Shown here: positions 14,964 through 62,027 of the stretch, piece after piece
How the letters are laid out: every line of letters begins with the position of its first letter
Position numbering within the stretch: the stretch's first letter is position 1
Assembly (NCBI GenBank): GCA_036873755.1
Contig: JAVTVY010025124.1
Coordinates: 51,718-115,717 of the forward strand
Source: Hanleya hanleyi
Lineage: Eukaryota; Mollusca; Polyplacophora; Lepidopleurida; Hanleyidae
Length of the DNA: 64,000 nt
Direction of reading: 5' to 3'
Made by a program: the position numbers and the translations under genes
Notes under the pieces: model-generated
What the model was told of the DNA's origin: nothing
The model's database searches: none
The model's input: the letters and a program-made list of their open reading frames with translations, nothing else

Positions 14964-15627
14964 TGCTTCATCAGAGGGTCATCAGAGGCTTCTCGGCGTA
15001 TTCCTTGGTGTAGCGGTCGGTACTTGGTTGAACAAAATGGACCCGGTGTTAAACAGCAAACAGATTCTGTATTTACGTTTTCCAGATGTGTTTATACAAC
15101 TGCTGAAAATGTTGATAATTCCAATCGTCGTGTCCAGTTTGGTGACAGCTACAGCATGCAGAAATGGATATCCGTTCCTCGGGAAAACTCGGTATTCGAG
15201 CCTCGGTCTACTATCTGACTACTATGGTACTGGCGGCTACTCTGGGAATAATATTAGCGGTGACTGTAAGGCCAGGGGAGATAATTGGTGTGAAAAATAT
15301 AATGGGGCTCCAAGGTTACGTCGAGTCTTCTGCCCGATAATCGCCTTCATGGATCTTCTGAGGTGAGGTTTTACTCTTGTATATTTGTTTGGCCAAAAAG
15401 TATCATCCGGAAATATGTCAAGACTGTGACGTCATTAGAGCCATCAGTGTATTTATATATATTCTACCTAGCTAAAATAAACAGTACATCTCTTACACCT
15501 CTGATTCTGGACAGAACATATTGGATATAAAGATATCACCATTTCTTCCAGTAGGGTTTCTTTCAATGATTTCTTTCTTCTCAGAAATATGCTTCCCGAT
15601 AACACGATGGAGGTTTGCTTTTTGTCC
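14964..15627 (+). pseudogene. Dead SLC1 duplicate (exons 1-2)
   Basis: An unprocessed partial copy of the gene at 18244. Exon 1-like sequence starts abruptly at ~14964 in the first membrane segment and retains ILYLRFPDVFIQLLKMLIIP. A ~4 bp insertion near 15157 then shifts the frame, and the rest of the exon is readable only in mixed frames to MDLLR with a donor at 15364/15365. Exon 2-like sequence is 15585-15627 after an acceptor TTCTTCTCAG, the same 43 nt as exon 2 at 19072, but its donor reads ATAAGC rather than GTAAGC. The intron is retained, so this arose by DNA duplication, not retrocopying. The upstream edge coincides with the end of the inverted-duplication arm. Confidence 0.85.
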
Positions 15628-18243: not shown

Positions 18244-18728
18244 ATGGGGACCGCGAAGGAAACACAAGAGCGAAGTACAGAGGAGAGTAAAAAGACGGAG
18301 GTGAGGAAACGGATCATAAGGTTTCTGAAACCAAACCTGCTGCTTTTGTTGATGTTACTCGGCGTGTTAATCGGTGTAGGGATCGGCGCAGGGTTGAGCA
18401 GAAAGGATCCCCATCTCAGCAACAACCAAATCATGTATTTACGGTTTCCCGGAGATTTGTTCATACAACTGATGGAGATGTTAATAATTCCGATCGTCGT
18501 TTCCAGTTTGGTGACCTGTACAGCAGAAATGGATATCCGGTCCTCGGGTAAGATCGGTCTACGGGCCTTGGTCTACTATCTGTTTACTGGTGTATTGGCG
18601 ACTACTCTAGGAATGACGTTGGCAGTGACAATCCGTCCAGGGGAGAGGATTGACACGGGGTCAATACAGGGGTCACAAACTGAGGGATTATCCACACGAC
18701 CCGAACACGCCTTCATGGATCTTTTGAG
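18244..18728 (+). CDS. SLC1 exon 1
   Basis: The first ATG with a family-like length before TM1 is 18244. The exon encodes a charged N terminus (about 26 residues), TM1, the FPGDLFIQL loop, TM2 with IPIVVSSLVT, and TM3. It ends in phase 2 at donor GAG/GTAAGG. A second copy of this exon is the pseudogene at 14964. Confidence 0.88.
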
Positions 18729-44198: not shown

Positions 44199-46103
44199 CA
44201 GTTTCAGTTTTTTTATTTCACCAATCGTTTCAAATAATACATTGTATTTAAACAAATATATAACATACTGTATAATAAAATGAAGATTGCACAAATACAT
44301 GAAATTGGCGGGAAGAAAACCCCAAGGGGTTTGAATTATCCCAAATGAATAAACAGAGCATTATTTATAGCGAAATATGTAGCGTTATAAGATAATGTAG
44401 TAAGGGTGTTGGACACTTATAGGGAATGACGGTGACAAGAAAACTAAAAAAATGAACATAAAACCCTGTGTGATTGCTTGCCCGTATAGAGATAACGGTG
44501 TTACTAATATTTGCCGAGAATGTAGATTTTCGTTTGGGACTTGAAAAGAGAAATAGGAACACAATTTTGTAAATTAGAGGGGAGTATGTTCCATTCACGA
44601 GGGGCTTTGATTTTTAGAGTGTAGAACGATAAATCGGTACGGTAAAATGGCCTATAGAGGCCCCTAAGTTGACCTCTAGTTGGGTATGTGTGAATATTTA
44701 CTAATTTCGTAAAGTAATTCTGAAACTTGGGGGGTAGTACGAAAGGATGGTGGACAAATTTATGACAGAATTGCAGCGTGAGGAATAGATTAAGGTCAAC
44801 TAGAGTAAGTATTTTCAGGCGAGCAAATAATGGGGCAGTATGTTCATATTTACTAACAAGTGATATAGTTCTAATAGCTCTCTTTTGTAATGTGATCAGT
44901 GGCTGCAAATGAGTAGGGTATGTGTTGCACCGTATCAGATTACAATAGAAGAGGTAGGGATATATAATAGAATAATATAGTATAAACAGGGTTCGTTTGT
45001 CAAGACAATCTTTAATGCAATTTATAATACCAATATTTCTAGAGATCTTTTTACATGTTTCGCTAATGTGAGTTACCCAGGTCAGCTTATTGTTTAAGAA
45101 TACACCAAGGAACTTGAATCTGTCGACCTCATCAATGTCTTGACCATGCAAAGATAATCGACCTATATCGTTGCCTCTGACTCTACAATTTGGTTTTACA
45201 AACATATATTTGGTTTTGCATATATTCAAGGACAGCATATTGGCCGAGAACCAATTGTGCATTAAATGTAGTTCACGTGACATAATAGTAAAAAGTTGAT
45301 TCTGATCTTTGTGGGACAATACCGCACTGGTGTCATCAGCAAATAAAGTTATGCTAAGTACATCAGAGGCAGCATTCAGATCATTAATATAGATCAGGAA
45401 TAGTATGGGGCCTAGAATGGATCCCTGCGGAACGCCGCACGAGATTCCCCTAGGAGCCGAGGTCGTGCCATTATAGCTGACAGACTGATAACGGTCAGAA
45501 AGGTAACTTTTGAACCAATCATTACTAATTCCTCTAAATCCATAGTGTTCTAGTTTTTGAAGAAGAATATGGTGGTTTACAGTATCGAAAGCTTTCGAAA
45601 GGTCTAGAAACGTGGCTATGCTATAGAGCTTAGATTCTTTAGCTAAGGTTAGAGATTCATGAGATTCATTCAGCCATGAAAGTGGAGTGGTTTGATCTGA
45701 AACCGAATTGATTAGAACAAAGGATGACAAATGTTTCAAGGAATTCGTTAACACGTTTTGAAGCAATTTTTTCAAGCAATTTACTAAAGCACGGTAAAAC
45801 AGATATCGGTCTATAATTCTCCATTAATGTATTGTCACCGGATTTAAAAATAGGTGTCACCTTTGCCGTTTTCATCGCTAATGGCACGACTCCGGATTGA
45901 AAAGACAGGTTAATGATTGCGACGAGTGGTTTGCTTATAAAGTTGGCAACAAGTTTAACCAAAGATATACTAATACCATCAATGCCAGACGCAGAGTCTT
46001 TGGCTTCAAGAAGAATTTCATTAATCTCTGCGCTGGAAGATGGTTTAAATTGGAAATTATTTTGGATGCGTTCTGTCAAGAATTCACTGAAGTGTGAATT
46101 CAC
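44199..46103 (-). mobile_element. 5'-truncated CR1/Jockey-like LINE with RT
   Basis: On the minus strand the coding part runs from 46103 to 44504. The first frame holds the RT N part: a PLVAIINLSF block, AKVTPIFKSGD, NYRPISVLPCFSKLLEK and NQFGFRSNHST. A single frameshift near 45680 moves to a second frame with FLDLSKAFDTVNHHILL, GVPQGSILGPILFLIYINDL and the catalytic FADDT, then the thumb region and a terminal zinc-poor domain ending ILGKY. The 3' UTR ends AAAAACTGAAACTGAAAC near 44199. No endonuclease domain remains. Apart from the one frameshift the frame is open, so it is fairly recent. Confidence 0.9.
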
Positions 46104-46389
46104 GGATGGGATTTTTTCTGTATTCTAGTGTGTACAAATACTGTATATACGTGTCTGGAAGTGGGATTCGATTTTCTAAGAAGAAAATGGTGTTGAAAAT
46201 GTGATCTGGAAGAGTTTCTCTCGCGAAAAACTTTGTTCTATCAGTTTAGTCCTATCTGGGCTGGGTCAGGCCTTGTGGGCCAATTTTCGGCTCCCCACTA
46301 AATATTCTTTCTCCTTGAACTAGGGGACTGAAACTTACCACACTATACCCTTGGGTCAAGCTCGACTAGAAAATAAAACAAAATCCAAG
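46104..46389. other. No gene seen
   Basis: Nothing recognised. Confidence 0.3.
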
Positions 46390-46700
46390 GTGGTCGCTCC
46401 GATGACCTCACAGTGACGTCATCTTCAAACAGGTATTTTTTGTCGATTTTTCGATTTTGTTATTTATGTGTTTTCTTTGCAAAAGCTGAATGATAAATTA
46501 GTAAATAATAGTCTGGTGTGAAATAAAATAGATTTTGCCCAATATCCCTCGAAGACCTCTATATGCAAATAAGCTCAAAATGACCCAATATGATAAACTA
46601 AAAAGTCGCAGAGGGTCAGCTTTCATTTATTGTCGTTCCGGAGATAGGAAAGAAACTTTGGTAGGGAGGGGGAGGGGGGGGGGGGCGCATAATGGACCCC
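46390..46700 (+). repeat. Dispersed repeat with TGACGTCA, inverse of 28621-28990
   Basis: Contains CTCACAGTGACGTCATC, TAAATTAGTAAATAATA and a poly-G run (46663-46684) next to GCGCATAATGGACC. Confidence 0.6.
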
Positions 46701-47064
46701 GGGACTGGTAAGGTTAATATTATTGTGCATCAGTAGGTTGATCTAGCAGAATAAATCACATTTTTGAACGCATAGTATTTTGGCGCTTTCTTTGTAAATC
46801 ATCCATAATTGTCATATATTGACATGATAAATGCCACCTTACATGGAGTGAACTATTTGGACCCTAATACAACGAGAGAAACTACAATGATCATACTGCT
46901 ACTGGAAACGTTACAGTGGATGGCAGATAAATGATGACCGGGTCTGTGGATGCAAAGACGGCTGAATTAGCAATATATTTTAATGTAAACAGTCTGGACT
47001 TAAAGAGAACCCAAATGCTCTGAGGTCACTTTTGGATGGATGATTCAGAGTATAATGCCGCTTA
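46701..47064. other. No gene seen
   Basis: Spacer before the virus-like cluster. No structure recognised. Confidence 0.3.
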
Positions 47065-47352
47065 CCCCATTTATTTCAAATTTACCGGGTTTTCCACACC
47101 ACCACGCCCATAACCTTACGGGTCTAAAATCGATAAAATCATTACAAATAGTGGGTTAGCCTGTCGCTAGCCTTCTGAATTTTTCAACGCTACACCATAA
47201 GTTCCCCAAGTTCAAGTTGAAATAAGTTTTACATGTCAACTCACATTTATTGCAAAATGACACCGGTTTAAAGATGGAAAAGAAACACAAAATTTCAGCC
47301 GGCCTGAGCAAACACAATCATTCGATGGGGAAGATTACGCCCACGTCCGCGT
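47065..47352 (+). repeat. ~285 bp direct repeat, copy 1
   Basis: Over 95 % identical to 47542-47827, from CCCATTTATTTCAAATTTAC to CACGTCCGCG. It contains the TTACGGGTCTAAAATCGATA block and AAATTTCAGCCGGCC. Confidence 0.9.
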
Positions 47353-47541
47353 CCGTATCACAGCGCTATACTGTCTGGAGCCGACTGTGTGTGTACAGCT
47401 ATGAGTGTCAATGGCTGTGTTACCGTAGCCAGCGTGATAGGATAAAAATTCCTACTTTTCTTTCGATAAACCCGCTCCAATTTTCAGGGTGACATTATAA
47501 GGCTGTGAGGAACACACCTGAAGTGTTTTTACGCAGGTAAA

Positions 47542-47827
47542 CCCATTTATTTCAAATTTACCGGGTTTTCCACACCAAAACGCCCATAACCTTACGGGTC
47601 TAAAATCGATAAAATCATTACAAATAGTGGGCTAGTCTACCGCTAGCCTTCTGAATTTTTCACCGCTACACCATAAGTTCCCCAAGTTCAAGTTGAAATA
47701 AGTTTTACATGTCAACTCACATTTATTGCAAAATGGCACCGGTTTAAAGATGGAAAAGAAACACAAAATTTCAGCCGGCCTGAGCAAACACAATCTTTGA
47801 ATGGGAAAATTTCGCTGACGTCCGCGC
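47542..47827 (+). repeat. ~285 bp direct repeat, copy 2
   Basis: Second copy, 477 bp downstream. It ends directly at the ATGGCGG-rich promoter of the RING gene. It could mark an element terminus duplicated by recombination, but no inverted partner is seen in the window. Confidence 0.9.
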
Positions 47828-47935
47828 AACAATGGCGCCAATGGTGGCTAATGGCGGATAATGGCGGCGCTCTACGGGTAGACTATAAATATCGCGCAGT
47901 ATCTCGTCTGCTATCCATTCATTCAGAACTGCATC
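47828..47935 (+). promoter_or_regulatory. Promoter of RING gene: ATGGCGG cluster plus TATA box
   Basis: Three to four ATGGCGG/ATGGTGG sites (47831-47868) lie just upstream of TATAAAT (47884-47890). The start codon is 46 bp after the TATA box, so the leader must be very short. The same sites dominate the divergent promoter at 50643-51037. Confidence 0.65.
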
Positions 47936-48541
47936 ATGACTACCAGACGGAGGCTATTCAACGCACAAGATCCTAGAGAACATAGGGAAGTGATTCACAC
48001 CAGTGGAGAAGACAACGATGAACATGTTACTATAATTACCAGCTTACAGCGGGTGGATGAACATCATATTGCTGATACGTTGAGACGGCGAGGTGCACAA
48101 CAAGACCAAGAGATAAGGGACGCTATGGAAGAAGATGTAACAGACGATGAAGTTCTCCCCGAGGTGGAGTGGTTAAATAGTAGACCCCCAGCAACTACAG
48201 CGGCTACCACAACGACGGCTACCCAAACGCCGGCTACCACAACGCCGGCTACCACAACTCCGGCTACAGCAACAGGAATGACAACACAACCACCTCTAGC
48301 AGAGATCGTCCGCCTGAACGAACAGATTGATCAAATGAACGAACACATTGATCAATTAGAAGAGGACAAGTGTAAACTACGTGTACAACTGACTAAGGAA
48401 GAGAATAAATCCACCTGTAGCGTGTGTAACATCGAAGAGACCATGTACGCCTTCTTCCCGTGCGGTCACCTATGCCTATGTCGGGAATGCTTGGTATCCC
48501 TAACATGTATAGGGGGGACGTGCCACTGCAGTGAGACGTAG
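47936..48541 (+). CDS. RING-finger protein, C terminus interrupted
   Basis: A 201-codon protein. Residues 1-80 are acidic and charged, 83-119 are Thr/Pro/Ala-rich, 122-157 form a likely coiled coil (LNEQIDQMNEHIDQLEEDK), and 161-186 start a C3HC4 RING (CSVC, then FPCGHLCLCREC) like those of IAP-type E3 ubiquitin ligases. The frame stops with TAG at 48539. The last zinc pair CPVCR is present in the same frame at about 48563-48577 and the frame then runs to 48618. So the RING is split by an in-frame stop: a null copy, or a stop read through. No intron fits the ~20 bp gap. The gene is intronless and TATA-driven, convergent with the CARD-PC4 gene. By analogy, a ligase acting on cell-death or immune signalling; that is inference. 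Confidence 0.75.
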   Translation: MTTRRRLFNAQDPREHREVIHTSGEDNDEHVTIITSLQRVDEHHIADTLRRRGAQQDQEIRDAMEEDVTDDEVLPEVEWLNSRPPATTAATTTTATQTPATTTPATTTPATATGMTTQPPLAEIVRLNEQIDQMNEHIDQLEEDKCKLRVQLTKEENKSTCSVCNIEETMYAFFPCGHLCLCRECLVSLTCIGGTCHCSET

Positions 48542-48734
48542 GAACTGCATTTAAAGATACGATGCCCTGTGTGTAGGACGTGGGTGTCTGGCGTGAAGAA
48601 AATTTTTCGCCCGTAAACAGTGTGATAACACTTTCCAAAGGGCCTTTTCAGGGCCAACCCAATCTTTCGAAAGAGGAAGCTTCTAACTCAAAGCACAAAA
48701 AACACCAGCTCCCATCACCAATATGAAAACCTAA

Positions 48735-49225
48735 GGTCTTCACCACAGTAGACTCTTAGTGTTGAATTTTTGTTAATACAATTATCTTTGCAAAGAATGA
48801 ACACTAACACCCATTTTGAATTTCTACTATTTTTATTAACACAATAGAATGAACGTCTTCACCACAGTAGATTCTTGGTATTGAATTTTTTTAATACAAT
48901 TATACGCTATCAAGGCGCTTAAATGAACGTAGAATGAACATAGAATGAACGTAGAATGTAGGAATACGGTAATGTCTGAATGTTCAATGCAACAAGACTT
49001 GTGTGAAATGGTCAATATTTATGCAACAAGACTAACACAGTAGAATGAACGTCTTCACCACAGTAGACTCTTGGTATTGAATTTTTTTAATACAATTATA
49101 CGCTATCAAGGCGCTTAAATGAACGTAGAATGAACATAGAATGAACATAGAATGTAGGAATACGGTAATGTCTGAATGTTCAATGCAACAAGACTTGTGT
49201 GAAATGGTCAATATTTATGCAACAA
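48735..49225. repeat. ~195 bp tandem repeat between convergent genes
   Basis: GTCTTCACCACAGTAGA(C/T)TC recurs at about 48738, 48856 and 49051. The last two copies are complete and nearly identical, with ATGAACGTAGAATGAACATAG triplets inside. The last copy runs into the stop-codon end of the CARD-PC4 gene. The array may contain the polyadenylation signals of both genes. Confidence 0.8.
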
Positions 49226-50530
49226 AACTTGTTTGAACTCGTCATCGTCTTTCCGCCCCTGGTGCACGTAGATGAAGGTGGCAATCTGTTCACGTGGAAT
49301 TCTGGATGGACAGGCAGCTTCCAATGCCTGGGCAATTTGCACCTCGTTCACGTCCTGTAGTGCCTCAGTGATGAGCGCGTCTGATGGTATACTATTGTCC
49401 ACACACGTATGCGTGTTGAAGAGCCCGTTCTTGTTCACACAGCCTGCACATTGCTGGATACGCAAGTGTCGAATGCGGGGTCTGAGATGATCCAGGAATG
49501 TGTCGATGTACTTCTTATAAATATACTGAGACACCTGGTCAGACAGGACTTCATGAATTTCAGCTGTGAGACTCTGCAGCTTCCGCCACGCAGGTATTTT
49601 CAGGGTGACGCCCTGAGAACAAGGAATACGCTTTTGCGTATCTGACCTCATTTTCCATTTTCGAATATGCACGAGGAGCATGTTGTTGAATGTAGAACAG
49701 GTGACAAAGATGTCGTCACCCACATAAAATTTCGCTTCGTCACTCCCCTGGTGGTCAATGACCGCATCGACGGCGTAATCAATGGCCTGTACTCTTATCC
49801 AGGTGTCCAACGTCAAGGCGATATGCTTAGGTGGTTTGTCGTCCCAGGCCGGTGCGTTAAAATGCACTTCCTCTTCTTTGACACTCACAGTTAAATAGGG
49901 AGAGAGCTCCCAAGTGTTCGTGTGGGCCGCCTGGTAGGCCTGCTGGATAATGTCATTGATCTCCTGCACAGACATAGGAAGTAGCACCTCTTCTTTCGCT
50001 TGCTCAGGCACTTGCTGGGGCACTGGCTGAAGCACTTGCTGAGGTATTTCTAAAGGTGTTAGTCGGGGCCGTTTGGGTAGTGCACCGGGACCGGACTCTT
50101 GGTGTGTACGTTTGGTAGCTGTACGCTCTTCGGCGACGTCCATGACTAAGATATTATCTTCTGAATCCTGGGCTTGAAGTAGATCTGCTAGTTCTTCATT
50201 TCCCGTCTTCTTCAGCGCCTCCACGAAGGCTAGAAATGTATAGGGGCCACGGCGCAGTAGATCGTCGATGAGGGCTCTGTTTTGTCGTGAAGTGGTTTTC
50301 TCCGCCATGATATCTTCGACACCGTGTTTAAGGATTATGTTTTCCTCCGTAAGCAGATCACATAGTTCGGCCACATGCTGCATCTCATCAATGAGGCGAA
50401 CACGGTACTGTTGAAGCTTAGCTCGCTGGGATGACTCCATGACTGTGGGCTCAGGCTGGTCAGTAGCTGCTACGGTGAAATAGGCTGGTGAAGTTGCACT
50501 GGTAAAATGAAAATCTTCTCCACGTCTCAT
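49208..50530 (-). CDS. CARD plus PC4-like fusion protein
   Basis: An uninterrupted 440-residue protein. Residues ~37-120 have the look of a caspase-recruitment domain: helices with LIDEMQHVAELCDLL, ILKHGVEDIMAE, TSRQNRALIDDLLRRG, FLAFVEALKKTGNEELADLL. A Gln/Pro-rich linker with a nuclear-localisation-like PKRPR (152-156) follows. Residues ~266-325 resemble the single-stranded-DNA-binding domain of PC4/SUB1: KFYVGDDIFVTCSTFNNMLL, VHIRKWK, GVTLKIPAWRKL. The C-terminal third is unassigned and includes a Cys pair (CAGC). The PC4 part suggests a role at viral-type promoters or replication forks, and the CARD part suggests contact with host apoptosis or inflammasome signalling. This pairing is not one I know from cellular genes. 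Start chosen at the first ATG; an internal Met at residue 31 is possible. Confidence 0.72.
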   Translation of the reverse strand: MRRGEDFHFTSATSPAYFTVAATDQPEPTVMESSQRAKLQQYRVRLIDEMQHVAELCDLLTEENIILKHGVEDIMAEKTTSRQNRALIDDLLRRGPYTFLAFVEALKKTGNEELADLLQAQDSEDNILVMDVAEERTATKRTHQESGPGALPKRPRLTPLEIPQQVLQPVPQQVPEQAKEEVLLPMSVQEINDIIQQAYQAAHTNTWELSPYLTVSVKEEEVHFNAPAWDDKPPKHIALTLDTWIRVQAIDYAVDAVIDHQGSDEAKFYVGDDIFVTCSTFNNMLLVHIRKWKMRSDTQKRIPCSQGVTLKIPAWRKLQSLTAEIHEVLSDQVSQYIYKKYIDTFLDHLRPRIRHLRIQQCAGCVNKNGLFNTHTCVDNSIPSDALITEALQDVNEVQIAQALEAACPSRIPREQIATFIYVHQGRKDDDEFKQVLLHKY

Positions 50531-50566
50531 GCTCCAGTGAGGCCCTACTGTGGTGAGAACAAGCTG

Positions 50567-50623
50567 GTAGGCAGGCAGGCAGGCAGGCAGGCTGGTCAGG
50601 CAGGCAGGCAGGCAGGTAGGTGT
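50567..50623. repeat. (GGCA)n microsatellite in the CARD-PC4 leader
   Basis: About 12 GGCA tetranucleotides with two interruptions, between the TATA box and the start codon. Confidence 0.9.
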
Positions 50624-50642
50624 GATAGCTATGTTGGGTAGT

Positions 50643-51037
50643 GCAATGAATACACCAAACCACTAAAAATCGCCCCCCTTTTATACGTTTTTCTTCAACA
50701 ATGGCGGATAATGGCGGCTAATCCGCCATTTTCCCACAATGGCGGTCAGGTCTTTCCGCCATTAGCCGCCATTATCCGCCATTTTCCTCACAATGACGGT
50801 CAGGTCTTTCCGCCATTAGCCGCCATTTTGCCCCATTTTCCCATAGGCAGTCAGGTCTTTCCGCCATTAGCCGCCATTTTCCCACAATGGCGGTCAGGTC
50901 TTTCCGCCATTAGCCGCCATTATCCACCATTTTATTAGCCGCCATTTTCCAACAATGGCGGATTCGCCGCCATTATCCGCCATTGTTGAAGAAAAACGTA
51001 TAAAAGGGGCGATTTTTAGTGGTTTGGTGTATTCATT
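50643..51037. promoter_or_regulatory. Mirror-image divergent promoter
   Basis: Inverted arms 50643-50733 and 50951-51037 are nearly identical. Reading outward, each has ATTATCCGCCATTGTTGAAG, then ACGTATAAAAGG, a GCGATTTTTAGTGG block and GGTTTGGTGTATTCATT (likely transcription start). TATA boxes: 50677-50685 (minus, CARD-PC4) and 50999-51007 (plus, polymerase). Between them the phrase GTCAGGTCTTTCCGCCATTA recurs four times, with over 15 CCGCCATT/AATGGCGG sites in total, which resemble the YY1 site (core ATGGC, GCCGCCATNTT). The layout would drive two genes equally in opposite directions. Confidence 0.8.
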
Positions 51038-51070
51038 CAAAGTCCAGGCGAAGCCCTGTTGCACAACAAT

Positions 51071-51127
51071 ATGAGTTCCAAATCACCAAATACAAACAGT
51101 ACCGAGAATGCAAGGATTCGCCGCTGA
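51071..51127 (+). other. Upstream ORF overlapping the polymerase start
   Basis: The first ATG after the TATA box opens an 18-codon frame ending at TGA 51125-51127, and the polymerase ATG at 51108 lies inside it in another frame. It may be a true uORF or the trace of a frameshift that cut off the original N terminus. Confidence 0.4.
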
Positions 51128-52250
51128 TGAGGGAATTTTTATCACAGATCCCGACGACCCGCCTATACAAGTATTACCGGTACAACCAGCTGTGCGTACC
51201 ATCGATCAACGACAATGGAATACCATACGCCATTGTTTCCATCGGCATCGCCCGATATTGGACTTATATAATTTCCGGTTGGAAGAAAACACCCGTCTAC
51301 GTAGCTACGTGGAAGCCATCTTCAACGGCCAAGATACAGCCTTCAAGTTCAATCTCACTTTTGGCTACATTCTTCGCCATAAAATATACCAAGTCATAGA
51401 ATTCACCCCCCAGGCTTGTTTTGAGAAGTTCGCGAACGACGTCACTACCGCCCGCCGCCAAGGAGACGCCGACCCCAGTAAAGCCATCATCGGGGAAACG
51501 ATGAAATTACTCGGGAACAGCGGATATGGAAAAACGGGAACGAACCAGGACCGTCACGTGACCGTGAACATTTGTACCACGAAACAAGCCCGCAAACGCG
51601 TGAATTCGCCTCTATACCGACACATGGAGATGATTGACGACACCACCTACGAAGTGACGTTAGCCAAAAAGACCATCACATATAACCTGCCGCTCCAAAT
51701 AGGATGTATGGTGTACCATCTGGCCAAACTGCGAATGCTGGAAGTCATATACGATTTCATGGGCGTGTATTTCCACCAATCAGACTGGCAATTGATAGAA
51801 ATGGACACCGACTCAGCATACATGGCCGTTTCCAACCCGGACTGGGAGTCACTCGTCAAACCAGAATTACGTGCACAATATGAGGCGGAACGGGACCAGT
51901 GGCTACCCCGACGCGACCACTACACCTACGACAAGCGGACGCCCGGCCTGTTTAAACTAGAGTGGAGCGGTGATGCCATGATCGCCCTGTGTTCGAAAAC
52001 TTACTTTTGTGACGGTGATGACAACAAATTCAGTTGTAACGGGGTGAGTCGACGCGACTCCAACATCAACAAGGCCCTGTACCTGAATGTCCTCCAGAGC
52101 CAAACCAGCGCCGTTGGGACCAACAAAGGTTTCCGTATCATCGACCACCAGATGCGCTCGTATACCCAGGACCGGGAAGCCTTCACATACTTCTACCACA
52201 AGCGCAAAGTCCTGCCCGATGGTGTGACTACAACCTATCTTGACATTTAG
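51108..52250 (+). pseudogene. Type-B DNA polymerase, internally deleted
   Basis: 380 codons. Residues 40-92 match the polymerase segment encoded at 61035-61215 (CFHRHRPI, LYNF, LRSYVEAIF, FGYILRHK). At residue ~93 the sequence jumps to a region close to the palm: KLLGNSGYGKTGTN (motif B-like NSxYG, 137-141), MDTDSAYM (motif C, catalytic DTDS, 232-236), TPGLFKLEW and SKTYFC (KxY motif, 297-299). The exonuclease motifs and polymerase motif A, hundreds of residues in this family, are missing. The frame is open across the junction, which could mean selection for a shorter product or a recent deletion. The family looks like the protein-primed polymerases of Polinton-like elements and related viruses. 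It could not polymerise DNA as it stands. Confidence 0.82.
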
Positions 52251-52261
52251 AGTGATAAATA

Positions 52262-52560
52262 CGAACACTGCAAATATTCCACTGGACTAACGAACTGTTC
52301 TATAATTCAATTTTTATGGGTACCAAACGCCTTTGATAAGACAGTTATATGTTCTATGAGTACTGATGATATTGCACCGGACTAACGAATTAACTGTTGT
52401 ATATAGGTTCAATAATTCAATTTAATTTTATGGGTACCAACCGCCTTTGATAAGGCATGATAAGAGGAACTCACTGTTGTATATATGTTCTATGAGTACT
52501 GCGGCTATTGCACCGGCCTTGTTGGGCTGAATTAACTGCTGTATATATGTTGTGTTTTCT
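52262..52560 (+). repeat. Tandem repeat downstream of the polymerase
   Basis: The phrase ATTGCACCGG(A/C)CTAACGAA is repeated near 52270 (worn), 52370 and 52507, and TTTATGGGTACCAA near 52312 and 52427. About 2.5 units of ~95-135 bp, each with TGTTCTATGAGTACTG. Confidence 0.7.
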
Positions 52561-52570
52561 GTTATAAAAT

Positions 52571-53344
52571 GTGTGTTATAAAACTGATCGTAGATATATT
52601 AATGTCGGAAGCCATAAAGCATTCTTTAGCTCGACTACATACAAGAGATATCATTCATGGGATGTTTCTTTGTTTATAGAGTTGCTTGAATTTCTCATTA
52701 AAAATATTTATGTGAAATTTGGCAACACAATATATCAGCAGCATATAGGTATTCCAATGGGTACTAATTGTGCACCCCTGTTGGCTGACCTGTATCTGTT
52801 CTCTTATGAATATGACTATATGCTGGCGCTTTCAAAAACCGACCCACTCAAAGCCCGTTCCTTCTCATTCACCAAACGCTATATAGACGATCTTCTCGCT
52901 GTGGATAATCGCTATATAAATGACGCAGTGAAGGATATATATCCACCTTCACTGGATTTGAAGGAAACTACAGATAGCCCTACAGGCACATCTTATTTAG
53001 ATCTCTACCTCTATAAAAATGAAGCGGGCATTCTCTCTCGTCGACTTTATGACAAAAGAGATGATTACAATTTCGACATCGTAAACTATCCCTTTCTGGA
53101 TAGTAATATTCCAGTGGGACCTGCATATGGCGTATACATATCTCGCTTAGTAGCATTTGCTAGATCCTGTGTTAAATGTGATGATTTTAATCAACGTCAC
53201 AAAACATTGTTGCAGAAACTTATAAAACAGGGCTATTCCATCAAGCGCCTCCACTCAAAGTTTCTCAAATTTGGCGATACATATCGCATGCTGATAGCAA
53301 AATACGAACGTAGCGTGCAAGATCTATGGCGCTACGTTTCGTAA
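52571..53344 (+). CDS. YIDD-type reverse transcriptase, longest copy (5'-truncated)
   Basis: 257 codons open from the truncation point to TAA at 53342; no ATG at the start, so the N part is missing. Motifs in order: SWDVSLFIELLEFLIKNIYV, QQHIGIPMGTNCAPLLADLYL, the catalytic KRYIDDLLAVDN, YPPSLDLKETT, SYLDLYLYK, LYDKRDDYNFDIVNYPFL, VGPAYGVYISRLVAFARS and the terminal LWRYVS. No GIY-YIG nuclease follows. It resembles endonuclease-lacking Penelope-like RTs, but the class is uncertain. It is the best template for naming the other copies in this window. Confidence 0.85.
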   Translation: MCYKTDRRYINVGSHKAFFSSTTYKRYHSWDVSLFIELLEFLIKNIYVKFGNTIYQQHIGIPMGTNCAPLLADLYLFSYEYDYMLALSKTDPLKARSFSFTKRYIDDLLAVDNRYINDAVKDIYPPSLDLKETTDSPTGTSYLDLYLYKNEAGILSRRLYDKRDDYNFDIVNYPFLDSNIPVGPAYGVYISRLVAFARSCVKCDDFNQRHKTLLQKLIKQGYSIKRLHSKFLKFGDTYRMLIAKYERSVQDLWRYVS

Positions 53345-53741
53345 CTTGTGTCTAATTCCGCTTAACCCGGGGCTAGGGGCCGTATGAACCCATGTACTTC
53401 AAGATCCTCATGGTACTCATATGAACAGTCACAATCAAAGCGTGACTGAGATACATCATTCTTTAGATGACGACTTTACAGCGAATATTATGGATTAAGA
53501 GTGCTGATCAGCGATACGGATTTGATATTTTTGGAACATCATGACGTCTTGCCGGCATCATTGAAAACTGTTGACCGCTTCTCTCTTGCAGGAAACAAGC
53601 CTATGTTTATGTATACTGATTGTCTTTTTGAATTTGGTGCTAATACTGTTATATGGAAATGGAATAGGTCTTTGGATTATGGACGCGGATATTCTCTAAT
53701 GGACGACGGCTGGATTATGAATGACGGACTAGACGCTTGTA
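53345..53741 (+). mobile_element. 3' UTR of the RT element
   Basis: Contains TAATTCCGCTTAACCCGGGG, CTAGGGGCCGTATGAACCC, the perfect hairpin CAGTCAC-AATCAAAGC-GTGACTG at 53427-53449 and the 3' terminus GGACTAGACGCTTGTAA. The insertion is followed by an AAAT-rich tract. Confidence 0.85.
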
Positions 53742-53744
53742 ATT

Positions 53745-53872
53745 TTCACAGAATAAATAAATAAATAAATAAATAAATTAATTAATTTTAATTAATCAAT
53801 AAATAAATAAATAAATAAATAAATAAATCAATAAATAAGTCAATAAATAAATAAATAAATAAATAAATAAAG
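53745..53872. repeat. (AAAT)n microsatellite
   Basis: AAAT tetranucleotides with an ATTAATTAATTTTAATTAAT interruption. It directly follows the RT element terminus. Confidence 0.95.
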
Positions 53873-55260: not shown

Positions 55261-55559
55261 ATGGGTGTATAGGGCCATACGGGGTGGACATGTTGGAGTC
55301 TAGGTGAGTCCCTAATGGTCCAATGGGGTCGAGTGAGGTCTTATTTTGAAGCTCTCGTGCAGGAGCATCCGACTGGTGTATTGTTTGTGTTCAATAGTCT
55401 GCGCATGCGCAGTCTAGCCGTAGTATAGAAAACAGGCATTTTGGGTGCTATGTAGGGGTGTGTTTGGGTTAGAGATGAGCTAATCACGGTTCGAATGGGT
55501 CGTGTGAGGTGTTAAAGTGAAGCTTGTGTGGGGTAGAGTCAGAATGGTGTGTTTTTGAA

Positions 55560-57393
55560 TGCATGTCGCGTTAATCTGCGCATGCGCAGTTGGTTGTAGT
55601 AAGTAAAGTGGCCATTTTGGGGCAGTGAAGGAAGGTATTTGGGGTAGAGAGGGACCATCCTTGGTCCGAATGCATCGTGTGAGGTGTCATTTTGTTGCTC
55701 TCGGGGTGTACATTCCGATTTGAGGGATGTCCGCGTCATCTGTGACGTCATCGGTGACGTCATCGGTACGAGTAGTAGCGAAAGTGGACATTTTCGGGCA
55801 GTACATGAAGGTATTTGGGGTCGAGATGGGCTATTCACGGTTCGAATACGTCCTGGAAGGTGTCATCTTGTAGTTCTCGGGGTGTACATTCCGATTTGAG
55901 GGATGTTCGCGTCATCTGTGACGTCATCGGTGACGTCATCGGTACGGGTAGTAGCGAAAGTGGACATTTTCGGGCAGTACATGAAGGTATTTGGGGTCGA
56001 GATGGGCTATTCACGGTTCGAATGCGTCCTGGAAGGTGTCATCTTGTAGTTCTCGGGATGTACATTCCGATTTAAGGGATGTCCGCGTCATCTGTGACGT
56101 CATCAGTGACGTCATCAGTACGAGTAGTAGCGAAAGGGAGCATTTTGGGTGCTATGTAGGGGTGTGTTTGGGGTAGAGATGGGCTATTCACTGTTTGAAT
56201 GGGTCGTGTGAGGTGTCAAAGTGAAGCTTGTGTGGGGTAGAGTCAGAATGGTGTGTTTTTGAATGCAAGTCGCGTTAATCTACGCATGCGCAGTTGGTTG
56301 TAGTAAGTAAAGTGACCATTTTGGGGCAGTACATGAAGGTATTTGGGGTCGAGATGGGCTATTCACGGTTCGAATGCGTCCTGGAAGGTGTCATCTTGTA
56401 GTTCTCGGGGTGTACATTCCGATTTAAGGGATGTCCGCGTCATCTGTGACGTCATCAGTGACGTCATCAGTACGAGTAGTAGCGAAAGGGGGCATTTTGG
56501 GTGCTATGTAGGGGTGTGTTTGGGGTAGAGATGGGCTATTCACGGTTCGAATGGGTCGTGTGAGGTGTCAAAGTGAAGCTTGTGTGGGGTAGAGTCAGAA
56601 TGGTGTGTTTTTGAATGCAAGTCGCGTTAATCTACGCATGCGCAGTTGGCTGTAGTAAGTAAAGTGGCCATTTTGGGGCAGTACATGAAGGTATTTGGGG
56701 TCGAGATGGGCTATTTACGGTTCGAATGCGTCGTGTGAGGTGTCATCTTGTAGCTCTCGGGGTGTAGACCCGATTTGAGGGCTGTCCACGTCACCTGTGA
56801 CGTCATCGGTGACGTCATCAGTACGAGTAGTAAGTAAAGTGGGTATTTTGGGGCAGTGAAAGGAAGGTATTTGGTGTAGAGATGCTCCATCCTTGGTCCG
56901 AATGCATCGTGTAAGGTGTCATGTTGTAGCTCTCGGGGTGTACATCTCCATTTTAGGGATGTTCGCTTCATCTGTGACGTCATCGGTGACGTCATCGGTA
57001 CGAGTAGTAGCGAAAGTGCACATTTTGGGGCAGTGCAGGTAGGTGTTTGGGATAGAGAAGGACCATCCTTGGTCCGAATGCGTCGTGTGAGGTGTCATGT
57101 TGTAGCTCTCGGGGTGTACATCTTCATTTTAGGGATGTCCGTGTCATCTGTGACGTCATCAGTGACGTCATCAGTACGAGTAGTAGCGAAAGTGGGCATT
57201 TTGGGGCAGTGAAGGAAGGTGTTTGGGGTAGAGAGGGACCATCCTTGGTCCGAATGGATCGTGTGAGGTGCCATTTTGTAGCGCTTAGGGTGTAGATTCC
57301 GATTTAAGGGATGTTCGCATCATCTGTGACGTCATTAGTGACGTCATCGGTACGAGTAGTAGCGAAAGTGGGCATTTTGGGGCAGTGAAGGAT
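55560..57393 (+). repeat. ~176 bp tandem array, left arm
   Basis: Two unit types alternate. Type A carries GTGACGTCATC(G/A)GTGACGTCATC, i.e. two TGACGTCA (CREB/ATF consensus) sites, near 55741, 55917, 56093, 56445, 56797, 56976, 57150 and 57326. Type B carries GCATGCGCAG(T/A)TGG (near 55578, 56285, 56637). Spacings are 174-179 or double that. Each unit also has GGGGTCGAGATGGGCTATTC or a variant. Confidence 0.9.
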
Positions 57394-57459
57394 GGGTTAG
57401 TAGTATGAAAGCGCATGTCGAGCCCCATTGACCTTGCGGCGCAATGCGCAATGAGAATG

Positions 57460-57493
<34 letters not shown>

Positions 57494-57782
57494 CGTCTGT
57501 GTGTGTGTGTGTGTGTGTGCATGTGTGTGTGTGTGTGTCTGTGTGTGTGTGTGTATGCGCCTGTCTGTCTGTGCACGTGTGCTTGCGTGTACGTGTGTGT
57601 GTATGTGTGTGTGTGTATGTGCGTGTGTGTGTCCGTGTGTCTGTGCATGTGTGCGTACGTGTGTGTGTGTGTACGCGTGTGTGTGTATACGTCTGTATGC
57701 GTGTGTTTATGCGTGTGTGTGTGTATGCGTCTGATGCGTGTGTGTGTGTGTGTGTGTATGCATCTGTGTATCTGGGTGCGTG
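57460..57782 (+). repeat. (TG)n-rich tract, left arm
   Basis: ~320 bp of TG repeats with interspersed ATGCGTC and TACG steps. It reads open in several frames, but this is simple sequence, not coding. The right-arm partner is ~100 bp shorter. Confidence 0.95.
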
Positions 57783-58095
57783 TGTGCATGCGCCGAGTTC
57801 TAAGAGCCCCGGAGAGAGAACAACAACAACAAGGATGACACATGAGAGAACAACAAGAAGTTTTTGTCATATAGTTTATTATCCCCAAATTTTACATCAT
57901 ACCCAGGCTGGGGGAGCCGCCCTGGGTATGTTTAGTATGTTCGCATTCGAAATATCAAACACCGTGTTTTATTATTCAACGCATCGTCACATCAGGTACA
58001 AGTGTTTACTGAGCTCAAGTCAGCGATCAGCATGTAGACATAGAGAGTATGTACGGCATGTTGTGGTATTCATCAGTGCATGGGTGACGCATTCA
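57783..58095. other. Arm spacer, left
   Basis: Unique arm sequence with an AACAACAACAACAAGG block. The reverse complement is 61430-61737. No gene seen. Confidence 0.5.
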
Positions 58096-59015
58096 CCCGA
58101 TGGGTTGATTGGTCGTCTTGGTCACGAAAAACGTAACATTGGTTACCCTCTTTACCACCCATTGTGTGTTGGGGCGTTGACGATGTGCCCATCTCAAGGC
58201 ATCCAATTGTTCCACTTAGGCCAGCATCATCTCTAGCGACGCCCGGTGAATGATGGTAAACGGCAGGTCAAACACAAGGTTGTTGGCACTGGGGTAACAA
58301 TACCGTAACTGGTCCGTCCTTTTGTGACGTAAGATGTACCCGAAAGCGACATTCAATTTGAAGGCCGTAGTTTGATCTTCGAAGATGGCTTCCATGTAGC
58401 TGCGTAGACGGGTGAGTTTGGTCAGTGGGAAATTGTAGATATCTTGAATAGGGCGATGACGGTGGAAACAGTACCGTGTCATAGACCAATGGCCCCGATC
58501 GTCGTCACTCACTGGATGGTTGTCCTGTAAGAGATCGCCAGGAACATTTATGGGCTCGACCAGAAAATGTTCGATGTTGTCAGGCGAATGACTCGAAACC
58601 GTAACGCTTGGGTCCGGCTGGATATCCAGGCTCTTCTGAACTGTGGTATAGGCGGGCTCTCCGTCATCGCATCACCAGTGGCGTTCGTCTCCCCGGGCTT
58701 ATCTTCACTGGGCCTGACCTTCCGCGGCTCCTCTATAGTAGAAGGTTGTCGCGCATACCGTGGTGATGGACTATGAATCAAACGTTGGTGCCGTCTTAAC
58801 TGACTGGGTCGTTTGAAGAGTTAACCACATTCATTACATTGTTCCGTCGCACCCTCGTGGAGTGAGCGTTCATGGCGCAGTAAAGCATCTTCCCGATTAA
58901 ATGACCGTGCGCAGGTTATACAAGTATATCGTGCACCATTGTGGATGGAGGCCTCGTGTCGTCGCAAATCTTCTGGGCGAATAAACTGCTTCTGGCAAGT
59001 TGTGCAAGTGAACAT
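58096..59015 (-). pseudogene. Zinc-finger-polymerase gene, left-arm copy
   Basis: Minus-strand partner of 60511-61430. It starts at ATG 59013-59015 with the same two C2H2 fingers. The third finger is cut by a stop 64 codons in (a C-to-T change turning CAA into TAA after CNECG). There is also a 1 bp loss near 58647 relative to the right copy. Downstream it keeps the FDLPFT segment in frame, where the right copy is shifted. Its own TATA box is at 59060-59068. Confidence 0.85.
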
Positions 59016-59182
59016 CTTGGTGGTTGAGAGAGTATCCGATGAAACGACCAGGCCGCTTCCCTTTTATAGTACGCTAGCTGGTGATTTATTTTTAGCACAC
59101 TCAGTTCAACTACCCCAAGTCGAGGACCAGACATATAGAGTATGTATTGCATGCTATGGTATTCATCAGTGCAAGGGTGGCA

Positions 59183-59420
59183 CATTCAGCCGATGGGGGT
59201 GGTCGGTCAGCTTGGTAGCGAAAAACGTGACATTGGTCACCCTCTCTACTATCCACTCGGTGTTGGGACGCTGTTCATAGGTCCATTCCAAGGGATCCAC
59301 AGTGTCCAGTTGGGCCAGCATCGTCTCTAGCGACGTCCGATTGGTGATTGTGAAAGGATGGTCGTACACTGGGTTGATGGCACTGGAATAGAAAGCGTAT
59401 AATGAAGCTTTCACAGATGC
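59183..59420 (-). pseudogene. Second polymerase N-terminal piece (paralogue)
   Basis: Minus strand encodes HPFTITNRTSLETMLAQLD, LEWTYEQRPNTEWIVERVTN and VTFFATKLTDHP. It is related (~55 %) to the matching end of the zinc-finger-polymerase gene, so it comes from a different but related element. It ends where that gene's promoter region begins. Confidence 0.7.
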
Positions 59421-59436
59421 ATGTGTGTTTATATGC

Positions 59437-59580
59437 AAGAGCTTCGAGCTCGCGGAGCTCTTGGAGCTCCGGAGCTCATGGAACTCGGAGCTCCGGAGCT
59501 CCGACGCCACCACCGGGCGTTGACGGGCGTTGCTACAAGAGAACTCGGAGCTCCGGAGCTCCGGAGCTCACTTCCGCTTC
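59437..59580. repeat. GAGCTCCG-rich palindrome core
   Basis: At least ten GAGCTC sites, many as GGAGCTCCGGAGCTCC, which are self-complementary at 6-16 bp. A GACGCCACC...GGGCGTTGACGGGCG insert divides the block. It sits at the symmetry centre of the giant palindrome. Confidence 0.8.
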
Positions 59581-59619
59581 CGTTCACGTGACCGGAACTG
59601 ACCTTTGACCCCGGCGCGC

Positions 59620-59647
59620 AAAGGTTTCCACCGCGGTGGAAACCTTT
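59620..59647. repeat. Perfect 28 bp palindrome
   Basis: Symmetric around CCGCGG. The arm AAAGGTTTCCACCG and its exact complement follow each other. It marks the right edge of the core where arm homology resumes at 59648. Confidence 0.9.
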
Positions 59648-59733
59648 ACCCAACACCGAGTGGATAGTAGAGAGGGTGACCAATGTCACGTTTTTCGTTA
59701 CCAAGCTGACCGACCACCCCCATCGGTTGAATT
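59648..59733 (+). pseudogene. Right-arm end of the second polymerase piece
   Basis: Reverse complement of 59186-59265 (NTEWIVERVTNVTFF in plus sense). It is cut at 59733 by the RT insertion. Confidence 0.75.
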
Positions 59734-60341
59734 ACAAGCGTCTAGTCCGTCATTCATAATCCAGCCGTCGTCCATTAGAGAATATCCGCGTCCATAATCC
59801 AAAGACCTATTCCATTTTCCACATAACAGTATTAGCACCAAATTCAAAAGGACAATCATAGTATACATAAACCTAGGCTTGTTTCCTGCAAGAGAGAAGC
59901 GGTCAACAGTTTTCAATGATGCCGGCAAGACATCATGATGTTCCAAAAATATCAAATCCGTATCGCTGATCAGTATTCTTAATCCATAATATTCGTTATA
60001 GAGTCGTCATCTAAAAAAAAAAGATGTATCTCAGTCACGCTTTGATTGTGTCTGTTCATATGAGTACCATGAGGATCTTGAAGTACATGGGTTCATACGG
60101 CCCCTAGCCCCGGGTTAAGCGGAATTAGACACAAGTTACGAAACGTAGCGCCATAGTTCTTGCACGCTACGTTCGTATTTTGCTATCAGCATGCGATATG
60201 TATCGCCAAATTTGAGAAACTTTGAGTGGAGGCGCTTGGTGGAATAGCCCTGTTTTATAAGTTTCTGCAACAATGTTTTGTGACGTTGATTAAAATCATC
60301 ACATTTAACACATGATCTAGCAAATGCTACTAAGCGAGATA
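59734..60341 (-). mobile_element. RT-element insertion in one palindrome arm
   Basis: Minus strand: C-terminal 75 or so codons of the YIDD RT (ISRLVAFARSCVKCDDF to LWRYVS, stop at ~60137) and the full 3' tail to TCTAGTCC/ACAAGC at 59737. ~97 % like 53140-53741. The left arm at 59179/59186 has the uninterrupted site. One change in the penultimate region gives VQELW. Confidence 0.88.
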
Positions 60342-60510
60342 TGTGCCACCCTTGCACTGATGAATACCATAGCATGCAATACATACTCTATATGTCTGGT
60401 CCTCGACTTGGGGTAGTTGAACTGAGTGTGCTAAAAATAGATCACCAGCTAGCGTACTATAAAAGGGAAGTGGCCTGGTCGTTTCATCGGATACTCTCTC
60501 AACCACCAAG
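60342..60510 (+). promoter_or_regulatory. Promoter of the zinc-finger-polymerase gene (right copy)
   Basis: TATAAAAGG at 60458-60466 with the ATG 45 bp later, the same spacing as the RING gene. The upstream block TGCACTGATGAATACCA(T/C) also occurs after the gene at 61449 (variant), so the promoter segment itself is duplicated. Confidence 0.65.
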
Positions 60511-61293
60511 ATGTTCACTTGCACAACTTGCCAGAAGCAGTTTATTCGCCCAGAAGATTTGCGACGACACGAGGCCTCCATCCACAACGGTGCACGATAT
60601 ACTTGTATAACCTGCGAACGGTCATTTAATCGGGAGGATGTTTTGCTGCGCCATGAACGCTCACTCCACGAGGGTGCGACGGAACAATGTAATGAATGTG
60701 GTCAACTCTTCAAACGACCCAGTCAGTTAAGACGGCACCAACGTTTGATTCATAGTCCATCACCACGGTATGCGCGACAACCTTCTACTATAGAGGAGCC
60801 GCGGAAGGTCAGGCCCAGTGAAGATAAACCCGGGGAGACGAACGCCACTGGTGATGCGATGACGGAGAGCCCGCCTATACCCACAGTTCAGAAGAGCCTG
60901 GATATCCAGCCGGACCCAAGCGTTACGGTTTCGAGTCATTCGCCTGACAACATCAAACATTTTCTGGTCGAGCCCATAAATGTTCCTGGCGATCTCTTAC
61001 AGGACAACCATCCAGTGAGTGACGACGATCGGGGCCATTGGTCTATGACACGGTACTGTTTCCACCGTCATCGCCCTATTCAAGATATCTACAATTTCCC
61101 ACTGACCAAACTCACCTGTCTACGCAGCTACGTGGAAGCCATCTTCGAAGATCAAACTACGGCCTTCAAATTGAATGTCGCTTTCGGGTACATCTTACGT
61201 CACAAAAGGACGGACCAGTTACGGTATTGTTACCCCAGTGCCAACAACCTTGTGTTGACCTGCCGTTTACCATCATTCACCGGGCGTCGCTAG
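60511..61293 (+). pseudogene. C2H2 zinc-finger plus polymerase N-terminal gene, right-arm copy
   Basis: 260 codons. Three C2H2 fingers fill residues 4-82 (C-x2-C-x12-H-x4-H: CTTCQKQF, CITCERSF, CNECGQLF). A Pro/Glu/Ser-rich linker follows, and from residue ~175 the polymerase segment CFHRHRPIQDIYNF, LRSYVEAIFEDQTTAF and FGYILRHK. A 1 bp loss near 61255 (TTT to TT) shifts the frame just before DLPFT, so the last ~12 residues are aberrant. The original frame continues to ~61430 and stops there; exonuclease and palm domains are absent in this locus. The fingers would be DNA-binding. Arm partner: 58096-59015. Confidence 0.82.
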
Positions 61294-61429
61294 AGATGAT
61301 GCTGGCCCAAGTGGAACAATTGGATGCCTTGAGATGGGCACATCGTCAACGCCCCAACACACAATGGGTGGTAAAGAGGGTAACCAATGTTACGTTTTTC
61401 GTGACCAAGACGACCAATCAACCCATCGG

Positions 61430-61737
61430 GTGAATGCGTCACCCATGCACTGATGAATACCACAACATGCCGTACATACTCTCTATGTCTACATGCTGAT
61501 CGTTGACTTGAGCTCAGTAAACACTTGTGCCTGATGTGACGATGCGTTGAATAATAAAACACGGTGTTTGATATTTCGAATGCGAACATACTAAACATAC
61601 CCAGGGCGGCTCCCCAAGCCTGGGTATGATGTAAAATTTGGGGATAATAAACTATATGACAAAAACTTCTTGTTGTTCTCTCATGTGTCATCCTTGTTGT
61701 TGTTGTTCTCTCTCCGGGGCTCTTAGAACTCGGCGCA
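61430..61737. other. Arm spacer, right
   Basis: Reverse complement of 57783-58095. No gene seen. Confidence 0.5.
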
Positions 61738-61926
61738 TGCACACACGCACCCAGACACACAGATGCATACACACACACACACACACACGCATCAGACGCA
61801 TACACACACACACGCATAAACACACGCATACAGACGTATACACACACACGCGTACACACATACACACGTACGCACAGACGCATACACACACACATGCACG
61901 CACACACACACACACACACACAGACG

Positions 61927-61960
<34 letters not shown>

Positions 61961-61962
61961 CA
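61738..61962 (-). repeat. (CA)n-rich tract, right arm
   Basis: Partner of 57460-57782, ~100 bp shorter. Same interspersed GCATACA steps. Confidence 0.95.
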
Positions 61963-62027
61963 TTCTCATTGCGCATTGCGCCGCAAGGTCAATGGGGCTC
62001 GACATGCGCTTTCATACTACTAATCCA

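What the first reader, a model, noticed from the sequence alone, without database searches (positions are those of the whole stretch)
47065..52560. Compact virus-like cluster: RING, CARD-PC4 and type-B polymerase under shared cis-elements
Three intronless TATA-driven genes lie in a compact arrangement (convergent, then divergent) amid a host region of long introns. The RING and CARD domains suggest interference with host death or immune signalling, and PC4 and PolB suggest DNA replication. ATGGCGG-type sites are upstream of all three. I do not know a described element with this gene set, and no integrase, ATPase or capsid gene is seen, so it may be a fragment of a larger element or an endogenised DNA virus.
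Basis: partly seen in the sequence, partly recalled or inferred. Interest (0 to 1): 0.88.

Follow-up and report, generated by a model that had tools for sequence, protein, structure and literature searches.

The report
Maverick relic with CARD-PC4 gene
This stretch of an apparently animal genome is likely the decayed remains of a virus-like Maverick element: its polymerase and RING genes are truncated, but one intact gene joins a CARD (cell-death signalling) domain to a PC4 (DNA-binding) domain, a pairing for which our searches found no relative and which is predicted to have linked the element's DNA to control of host cell death.

Summary
The three genes are there, in the order described. Two are damaged: the RING frame stops before its last cysteine pair, and the PolB frame joins an N-terminal domain directly to the palm, about 910 residues missing, motif A among them. 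CARD-PC4 (440 aa) is intact and matched nothing among 5.8 billion proteins. The shared cis-elements are real: 18 ATGGCGG/CCGCCAT cores lie in a 300-bp divergent promoter whose halves are inverted copies, and a 20-mer recurs in the RING promoter; they fit the YY1 consensus. Contig L001, from a tubeworm-symbiont assembly, carries a nearly full PolB of this lineage beside integrase, packaging-type ATPase and adenain-like protease, a Maverick/Polinton set. That CARD-PC4 and RING belonged to the same element rests on shared promoter sequence only. Best reading: a Maverick relic whose surviving gene likely encoded an ssDNA-binding CARD decoy. New variant of a known kind; interest 0.58. The window's own genome could not be searched (genome search did not complete).

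The parts
47066..47826 (.). Two tandem copies (47066-47351, 47542-47826; 94% identical) of a 286-bp sequence upstream of the RING gene; function unknown
47830..47891 (+). RING-gene promoter region: two ATGGCGG cores (47851, 47861), a 20-mer (47850-47869) identical to the reverse complement of 50965-50984, and TATAAATA at 47884
47936..48541 (+). RING gene: Thr/Pro-rich stretch, then a cIAP-type RING cut by an in-frame stop (48539-48541) before its last Cys pair; the typical CPVC and tail follow in the same frame behind the stop
48837..49229 (.). 196-bp tandem duplication between the convergent genes; it takes in the 3' end of CARD-PC4
49208..50530 (-). CARD-PC4 gene, intact, 440 aa: CARD 37-120, bipartite-NLS-like 140-156, PC4 273-320, CxxC...HxC stretch 361-376
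50645..51037 (.). Divergent promoter: inverted copies 50645-50745 and 50939-51037 (TATA box and start of the leader included) around a 43-bp tandem array; 18 ATGGCGG/CCGCCAT (YY1-type) cores
51108..52250 (+). Truncated PolB gene, 380 aa: residues 12-104 match L001 PolB 74-170 and residues 79-380 match 1082-1409; motifs B and C present; exonuclease region, motif A and Vsr-like region absent
52569..53744 (+). Reverse-transcriptase repeat copy (Penelope-like by recall) that marks the right-hand limit of the cluster; more copies in the window
58096..59068 (-). Fragments of a second, C2H2-headed PolB gene (N-terminal part only) behind TATAAAAG at 59061, in the left arm of a large inverted repeat
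60458..61430 (+). Mirror copy: TATAAAAG, then a PolB N-terminal fragment with 3 C2H2 fingers, 55% identical over 82 residues to the N-terminus of the PolB at 51108

Best explanation
The cluster is most likely a decayed piece of a virus-like Maverick/Polinton-lineage element whose one intact gene, which joins a caspase-9-type CARD to a PC4 domain, likely made a protein that bound the element's single-stranded replication DNA and would block CARD-driven death signalling of the host. Shown: the intact CARD-PC4 frame; a PolB frame that lacks about 910 internal residues of a polymerase which, in contig L001, is followed by ATPase and RVE integrase genes; a RING frame that stops before its last Cys pair; a divergent promoter made of two inverted copies full of ATGGCGG cores; one of its 20-mers in the RING promoter. 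Inferred: that all three genes came with one element; that a YY1-type host factor drove them together, giving the SSB-like CARD protein, the polymerase and the IAP-type RING in one block; that PC4 coats ssDNA exposed by protein-primed replication; that the CARD acts as a decoy or scaffold for the Apaf-1/caspase-9 type of contact while the RING ubiquitinated death-pathway proteins. As they stand the polymerase and the RING are not expected to work, so only CARD-PC4 could still act.
For: CARD: Pfam 52.5 bits; the best seven of 13 PDB sequences are five named caspase-9 and two named Caspase. PC4: Pfam 31.0 bits against a cut-off of 25, and an alignment over the core of human PC4, at weak E (0.08-0.12). 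PolB lineage: 1414 proteins at E<=1e-3 among 2059 candidates, best 67% identity over 79% of the query; L001 PolB with integrase (rve 3.8e-13), chromodomain (3.5e-8), Adeno_IVa2-type ATPase (9.5e-5, 21.8 bits against 21) and adenain-like protease (7.8e-4, 19.6 bits against 21.3, just below). The PolB N-terminus is 55% identical over 82 residues to a C2H2-headed PolB fragment 9 kb away, so the window holds several pieces of this lineage. Shared promoter sequence. A viral precedent for an anti-apoptotic CARD gene: iridovirus GIV-CARD (PMC4457926, abstract).
Against: tblastn with 8 ORFs of L001 found no integrase, capsid-like or protease gene in the window, and only one weak ATPase match (E 0.001) that lies inside an RT ORF. 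No inverted repeat joins the cluster's two ends. L001 and L002 hold no match to CARD-PC4 or RING better than E 0.22. The CARD-PC4/PolB link rests on promoter sequence, which could have been duplicated next to an unrelated gene. No binding, expression or cell-death data. G+C and CpG do not separate the cluster's genes from a host exon. The window's PolB and RING score just below the Pfam cut-offs.
Confidence: 0.5

Rival explanations
1. Chance mosaic: CARD-PC4 and RING are host genes (or retrocopies), and a truncated Maverick PolB landed beside CARD-PC4 and took over an inverted copy of its promoter.
For: CARD and IAP-type RING are also host domain types (most PDB matches are host proteins); the two promoter halves are inverted copies of each other, as a duplication would leave; L001 lacks both genes; no Maverick ends.
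Against: All three promoter regions share ATGGCGG blocks, the RING gene included. All three are single open frames without introns. No relative of CARD-PC4 was found among 5.8 billion proteins, which include named animal sequences.
Confidence: 0.25
2. Domesticated gene pair: the host keeps CARD-PC4, and perhaps the truncated PolB as a dominant interfering protein, as a defence against live Mavericks; both are driven by one divergent promoter.
For: CARD-PC4 is intact, and the PolB frame is still open over 380 codons in spite of its internal deletion; the promoter halves are still about 92% identical.
Against: A recent insertion explains open frames as well. No relatives, so no test of selection. 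The RING gene is already broken.
Confidence: 0.12
3. The genes come from another, larger DNA virus that carried a Maverick-like PolB together with CARD and RING genes (as iridoviruses carry CARD genes), not from a Maverick.
For: Viral CARD genes are known in iridoviruses; the window lacks the other genes of L001.
Against: The same PolB lineage, with the same N-terminal domain, sits beside RVE integrase and ATPase in L001; pattern scans of IMG/VR gave no relative of CARD-PC4 or PolB.
Confidence: 0.1

Closest known systems
Maverick/Polinton (adintovirus-type) elements; concrete relative L001 (QGON01000029.1)
   Same: PolB with the same N-terminal domain and palm; L001 adds a weak C2H2 match (E 0.014), the exonuclease region and motif A, and is followed by ATPase, RVE integrase with chromodomain, and adenain-like protease
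   Different: The window keeps only a PolB with about 910 residues missing; no integrase, capsid-like, or protease gene; it has CARD-PC4 and RING genes that L001 lacks
Iridovirus CARD proteins (GIV-CARD, PMC4457926)
   Same: Virus-carried CARD; GIV-CARD lowers caspase-8 and -9 activity according to its abstract
   Different: GIV-CARD is a 91-aa protein said to resemble human ICEBERG; here the CARD is fused to PC4 and is closest to caspase-9
PC4 / p15 transcriptional coactivator (1pcf)
   Same: Aligns across the PC4 core
   Different: Host PC4 has no CARD (recalled); similarity is low (16 bits to PDB PC4, 31 bits to the Pfam model)
cIAP1/cIAP2 (BIRC2/BIRC3)
   Same: RING of the same type; cIAPs also join CARD and RING in one chain (recalled)
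   Different: No BIR hit; CARD and RING are in separate genes; RING cut before its last Cys pair

Membership tests
Maverick/Polinton element | protein-primed type PolB | tested here: inconclusive
   Homologous N-terminal domain and palm, but about 910 residues missing including motif A; that the lineage is protein-primed was not shown here
Maverick/Polinton element | RVE integrase | tested here: not met
   None in the window by tblastn with the L001 integrase; present in L001
Maverick/Polinton element | packaging ATPase, adenain-like protease, capsid proteins | tested here: not met
   None convincing in the window by tblastn with the L001 ORFs; in L001 ATPase above and protease just below the Pfam cut-off, capsid proteins by recalled resemblance only
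Maverick/Polinton element | terminal inverted repeats | tested here: not met
   No inverted repeat of 14 or more joins the two ends of 46200-52700; ends further out or diverged are not excluded
Maverick/Polinton element | target-site duplication | not tested
   No element ends to test
CARD family (PF00619) | CARD above curated cut-off | tested here: met
   52.5 bits against 23.9
PC4 family (PF02229) | PC4 above curated cut-off | tested here: met
   31.0 bits against 25; ssDNA binding not testable here
IAP family | BIR repeat | tested here: not met
   No BIR hit in the 201 aa
IAP-type RING E3 | eight zinc ligands in RING order | tested here: not met
   C161, C164, C176, H178, C182, C185 are present; the frame stops before the last CxxC
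YY1-type site | CCGCCATNTT | tested here: met
   5 exact matches in the divergent promoter, all on the + strand, and 2 elsewhere in the window; consensus from PMC7554316, passages; binding not testable

The most novel reading that the evidence does not exclude
A virus-like element invented a DNA-tethered death-fold protein, CARD fused to PC4, that assembles on its own single-stranded replication DNA and there captures Apaf-1/caspase-9-type CARD proteins. Its PolB, CARD-PC4 and RING formed one YY1-iteron regulon that also serves as a replication origin, and the surviving CARD-PC4 is kept by the host.
Probability: 0.12. Interest if true: 0.88.

Novelty: new variant of a known kind. Interest (0 to 1): 0.58.

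Why it matters
[quoted passage not shown] A CARD fused to an ssDNA-binding domain would be a direct physical link between element DNA and the apoptosome pathway, and it is testable with one intact gene. No paper in the library held both 'PC4' and 'polinton' as whole words, and none of the 20 listed of 110 papers held 'caspase recruitment'.

Tried and rejected
Structure: CARD-PC4 folded alone gave pLDDT 39 and PolB with A1 gave 52.7 with no Foldseek hit at E<=0.001; neither model is used, although the predicted strand order in the PC4 region looks PC4-like. Viral contigs: none of 5 scans gave a relative (CARD-PC4, PolB, A1, L001 capsid-like ORF, L001 integrase). Phage records: none for PolB. 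PDB by sequence: none for the window's PolB. PHROGs: a weak DNA polymerase match for PolB (4.7e-4) and an endonuclease match for P0001 (2e-6), all others weaker than 0.01. PADLOC: only weak matches to the RING protein, E 0.017 and 0.026. NCBIfam: the one call failed on a wrong frame (43) and was not repeated. Rfam (40000-64000) and tRNA (whole window): nothing. Composition: G+C and CpG of the three genes are not distinct from a host exon, so composition was dropped. The Poisson P of 5e-39 for the cores overstates the case, because the cores lie in a tandem array. A replication-origin role for the promoter: no test possible.
Full report
Observation. Three ORFs lie at the stated place: RING 47936-48541 (+), CARD-PC4 49208-50530 (-), PolB 51108-52250 (+). 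Pfam finds CARD (5.1e-14) and PC4 (1.8e-7) above their cut-offs, and RING (1.1e-5) and DNA_pol_B_2 (2.2e-5) slightly below theirs. The 440 and 380 aa frames far exceed resampled sequence (longest 205 aa in 30 resamples of 64 kb; 198 aa in 200 of cluster length); the 201 aa RING frame does not stand out by length, and its reality rests on the domain match (RINGs of BIRC2 and BIRC3, E about 1e-6).

State of the genes. The RING frame reaches an in-frame TAG at 48539-48541; the CPVC pair and tail typical of IAP RINGs follow in the same frame behind it, so the encoded RING lacks its last pair of ligands. The PolB frame aligns with its relatives only from about residue 79 to 380; when the 120 listed relatives were compared with the window, all 120 matching pieces began between 51000 and 52000 on the + strand. 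Its first part (residues 12-104) matches L001 PolB 74-170 (31%, E 8e-10), its rest (79-380) matches 1082-1409 (43%, E 5e-85). About 910 residues are therefore absent, among them motif A (GYDANALYL in relatives), the exonuclease region (motif names recalled) and a Vsr-like endonuclease region (P0001: PHROG endonuclease 2e-6; Vsr structures E 0.004 with A1; Pfam Vsr 0.015-0.018, below cut-off). CARD-PC4 is intact.

Promoters. 18 of the window's 30 ATGGCGG/CCGCCAT cores lie in 50690-50990. The two halves of the divergent promoter, 50645-50745 and 50939-51037, are inverted copies (92%, 101 bp) that include the TATA box and about 30 bp beyond it, so the two transcripts would begin alike. Between them is a 43-bp tandem array. 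The RING promoter shares a 20-mer with it. Seven of the 17 distances between neighbouring cores are 10 bp, about one helix turn. The YY1 consensus CCGCCATNTT (PMC7554316, passages) occurs five times there, all on the + strand, and twice elsewhere in the window. Four of the five TATAAAAG sites in the window stand before CARD-PC4 or PolB-type frames (50678, 50999, 59061, 60458). The C2H2-headed PolB fragments have no ATGGCGG core before them, so this promoter type is not common to all PolB pieces here.

Origin of the PolB. A search of 5.8 billion proteins gave 1414 relatives at E<=1e-3 among 2059 candidates (120 listed); those of the 120 that bear an organism name are animals: Amphiura, Porites, Oculina, Holothuria, Apostichopus, Diadema. 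A scan of prokaryote genome contigs gave two loci of one MAG, 'bacterium endosymbiont of Escarpia laminata', presumably host or virus DNA that went along. L001 (11,769 bp) has a PolB of 1409 aa (open at its 5' end; one C2H2 match below cut-off, E 0.014), then an ATPase (Adeno_IVa2 9.5e-5, just above cut-off; other P-loop families too, one of them, RNA_helicase, also just above its cut-off; Pox_A32 0.0015, below), an integrase (rve 3.8e-13, Chromo 3.5e-8) and an adenain-like protease (Peptidase_C5 7.8e-4, just below cut-off). Two or three further ORFs look like capsid proteins by recall only: Pfam found nothing for 7899-8738, 8742-9200 and 9061-10497, nor did the PDB sequence search for the last. 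[quoted passage not shown] L001 fits by PolB, integrase and ATPase, and by the protease a little below threshold. The window's own N-terminal PolB fragments at 58096-59068 and 60458-61430 begin with C2H2 fingers, and the second is 55% identical over 82 residues to the N-terminus of the PolB at 51108. The PolB therefore comes from a Maverick-type lineage.

CARD-PC4. Nothing similar was found among 5.8 billion proteins (full length, 3875 candidates, none at E<=1e-3; residues 262-440, 103 candidates, none at E<=10), nor in IMG/VR by patterns. The method needs shared 5-residue words, so a distant relative could be missed. The CARD is closest to caspase-9 among solved structures. The PC4 part aligns with human PC4 across its core. 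A bipartite nuclear-signal-like stretch lies between them (KR...KRPR, residues 140-156; label recalled).

How it likely worked (inferred). A divergent block makes a PC4-type ssDNA-binding protein with a CARD and the polymerase together; a second gene under the same kind of sites makes an IAP-type RING. Protein-primed replication displaces single strands (recalled); a PC4 protein would coat them, and its CARD could occupy the CARDs of the host's caspase-activating platform. The iridovirus GIV-CARD is a viral precedent for CARD-based inhibition of caspase-8 and -9 (PMC4457926, abstract and outline).

What speaks against it. The window holds no integrase, capsid-like or protease gene of the element by tblastn with L001, no inverted-repeat ends were found, L001 has neither CARD-PC4 nor RING, and that contig stops where a divergent neighbour of PolB would begin. 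The union of the three genes rests on promoter sequence, and promoters can be duplicated. I give the Maverick origin of the PolB about 0.9, membership of CARD-PC4 in the same element about 0.6, and the CARD-decoy function about 0.35; the joint reading is 0.5 with its functional part held loosely.

Novelty. The PolB is a damaged member of a known kind. The CARD-PC4 fusion, and its pairing with a Maverick PolB under one YY1-type divergent promoter, did not appear in the listings (titles, abstract starts and term counts seen; lists capped at 10 to 20 rows). Passages were seen of PMC11071308, PMC12721341, PMC8097293 and PMC4028283; the main text of PMC8097293, on vertebrate Mavericks, holds none of 'caspase', 'card', 'ring finger', 'pc4' or 'zinc finger'. 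The adintovirus paper and the coral polintovirus paper were not held, so a mention there is not excluded. Hence: new variant of a known kind.

Noticed in passing
55420-64000: Large inverted repeat in pieces (the longest 1328 nt, 96% complementary; others 82-99%), arms about 55420-59185 and 60341-64000, running off the window. Each arm holds a C2H2-headed PolB N-terminal fragment, a CA/TG microsatellite and a 176-bp tandem array. It looks like a fold-back (snapback) product of the PolB lineage.
   Followed up: partly
L001 (QGON01000029.1) and L002: Contigs filed under a bacterial endosymbiont MAG of a tubeworm carry a Maverick-like gene set with PolB; likely host or virus DNA binned with the bacterium.
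   Followed up: partly
A1 / P0001 residues 87-173: This PolB lineage carries a Vsr-like endonuclease region between motif A and motif B.
   Followed up: partly
48518-48539: Short imperfect palindrome that ends on the first base of the RING gene's stop codon.
   Followed up: no
4406-4690, 5655-6306, 11080-11598, 32555-33492, 34180-34902, 52569-53773, 59730-60344: Copies or pieces of one reverse-transcriptase repeat (Penelope-like by recall), about 81-97% alike over the longer matching parts.
   Followed up: no
44504-46124 (-): RT ORFs of a non-LTR-type element (RVT_1, 9.7e-28 for 44507-45823), left neighbour of the cluster.
   Followed up: no
14827-15363 and 18178-18729 (+): Two frames with SDF (sodium:dicarboxylate symporter) matches, 76% identical over about 299 bp, probably exons of a host gene and a second copy.
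   Followed up: no
49208-50530 (-), residues 361-376: CARD-PC4 has a CxxC...HxC stretch behind PC4 that may bind zinc; no Pfam family matched there.
   Followed up: no
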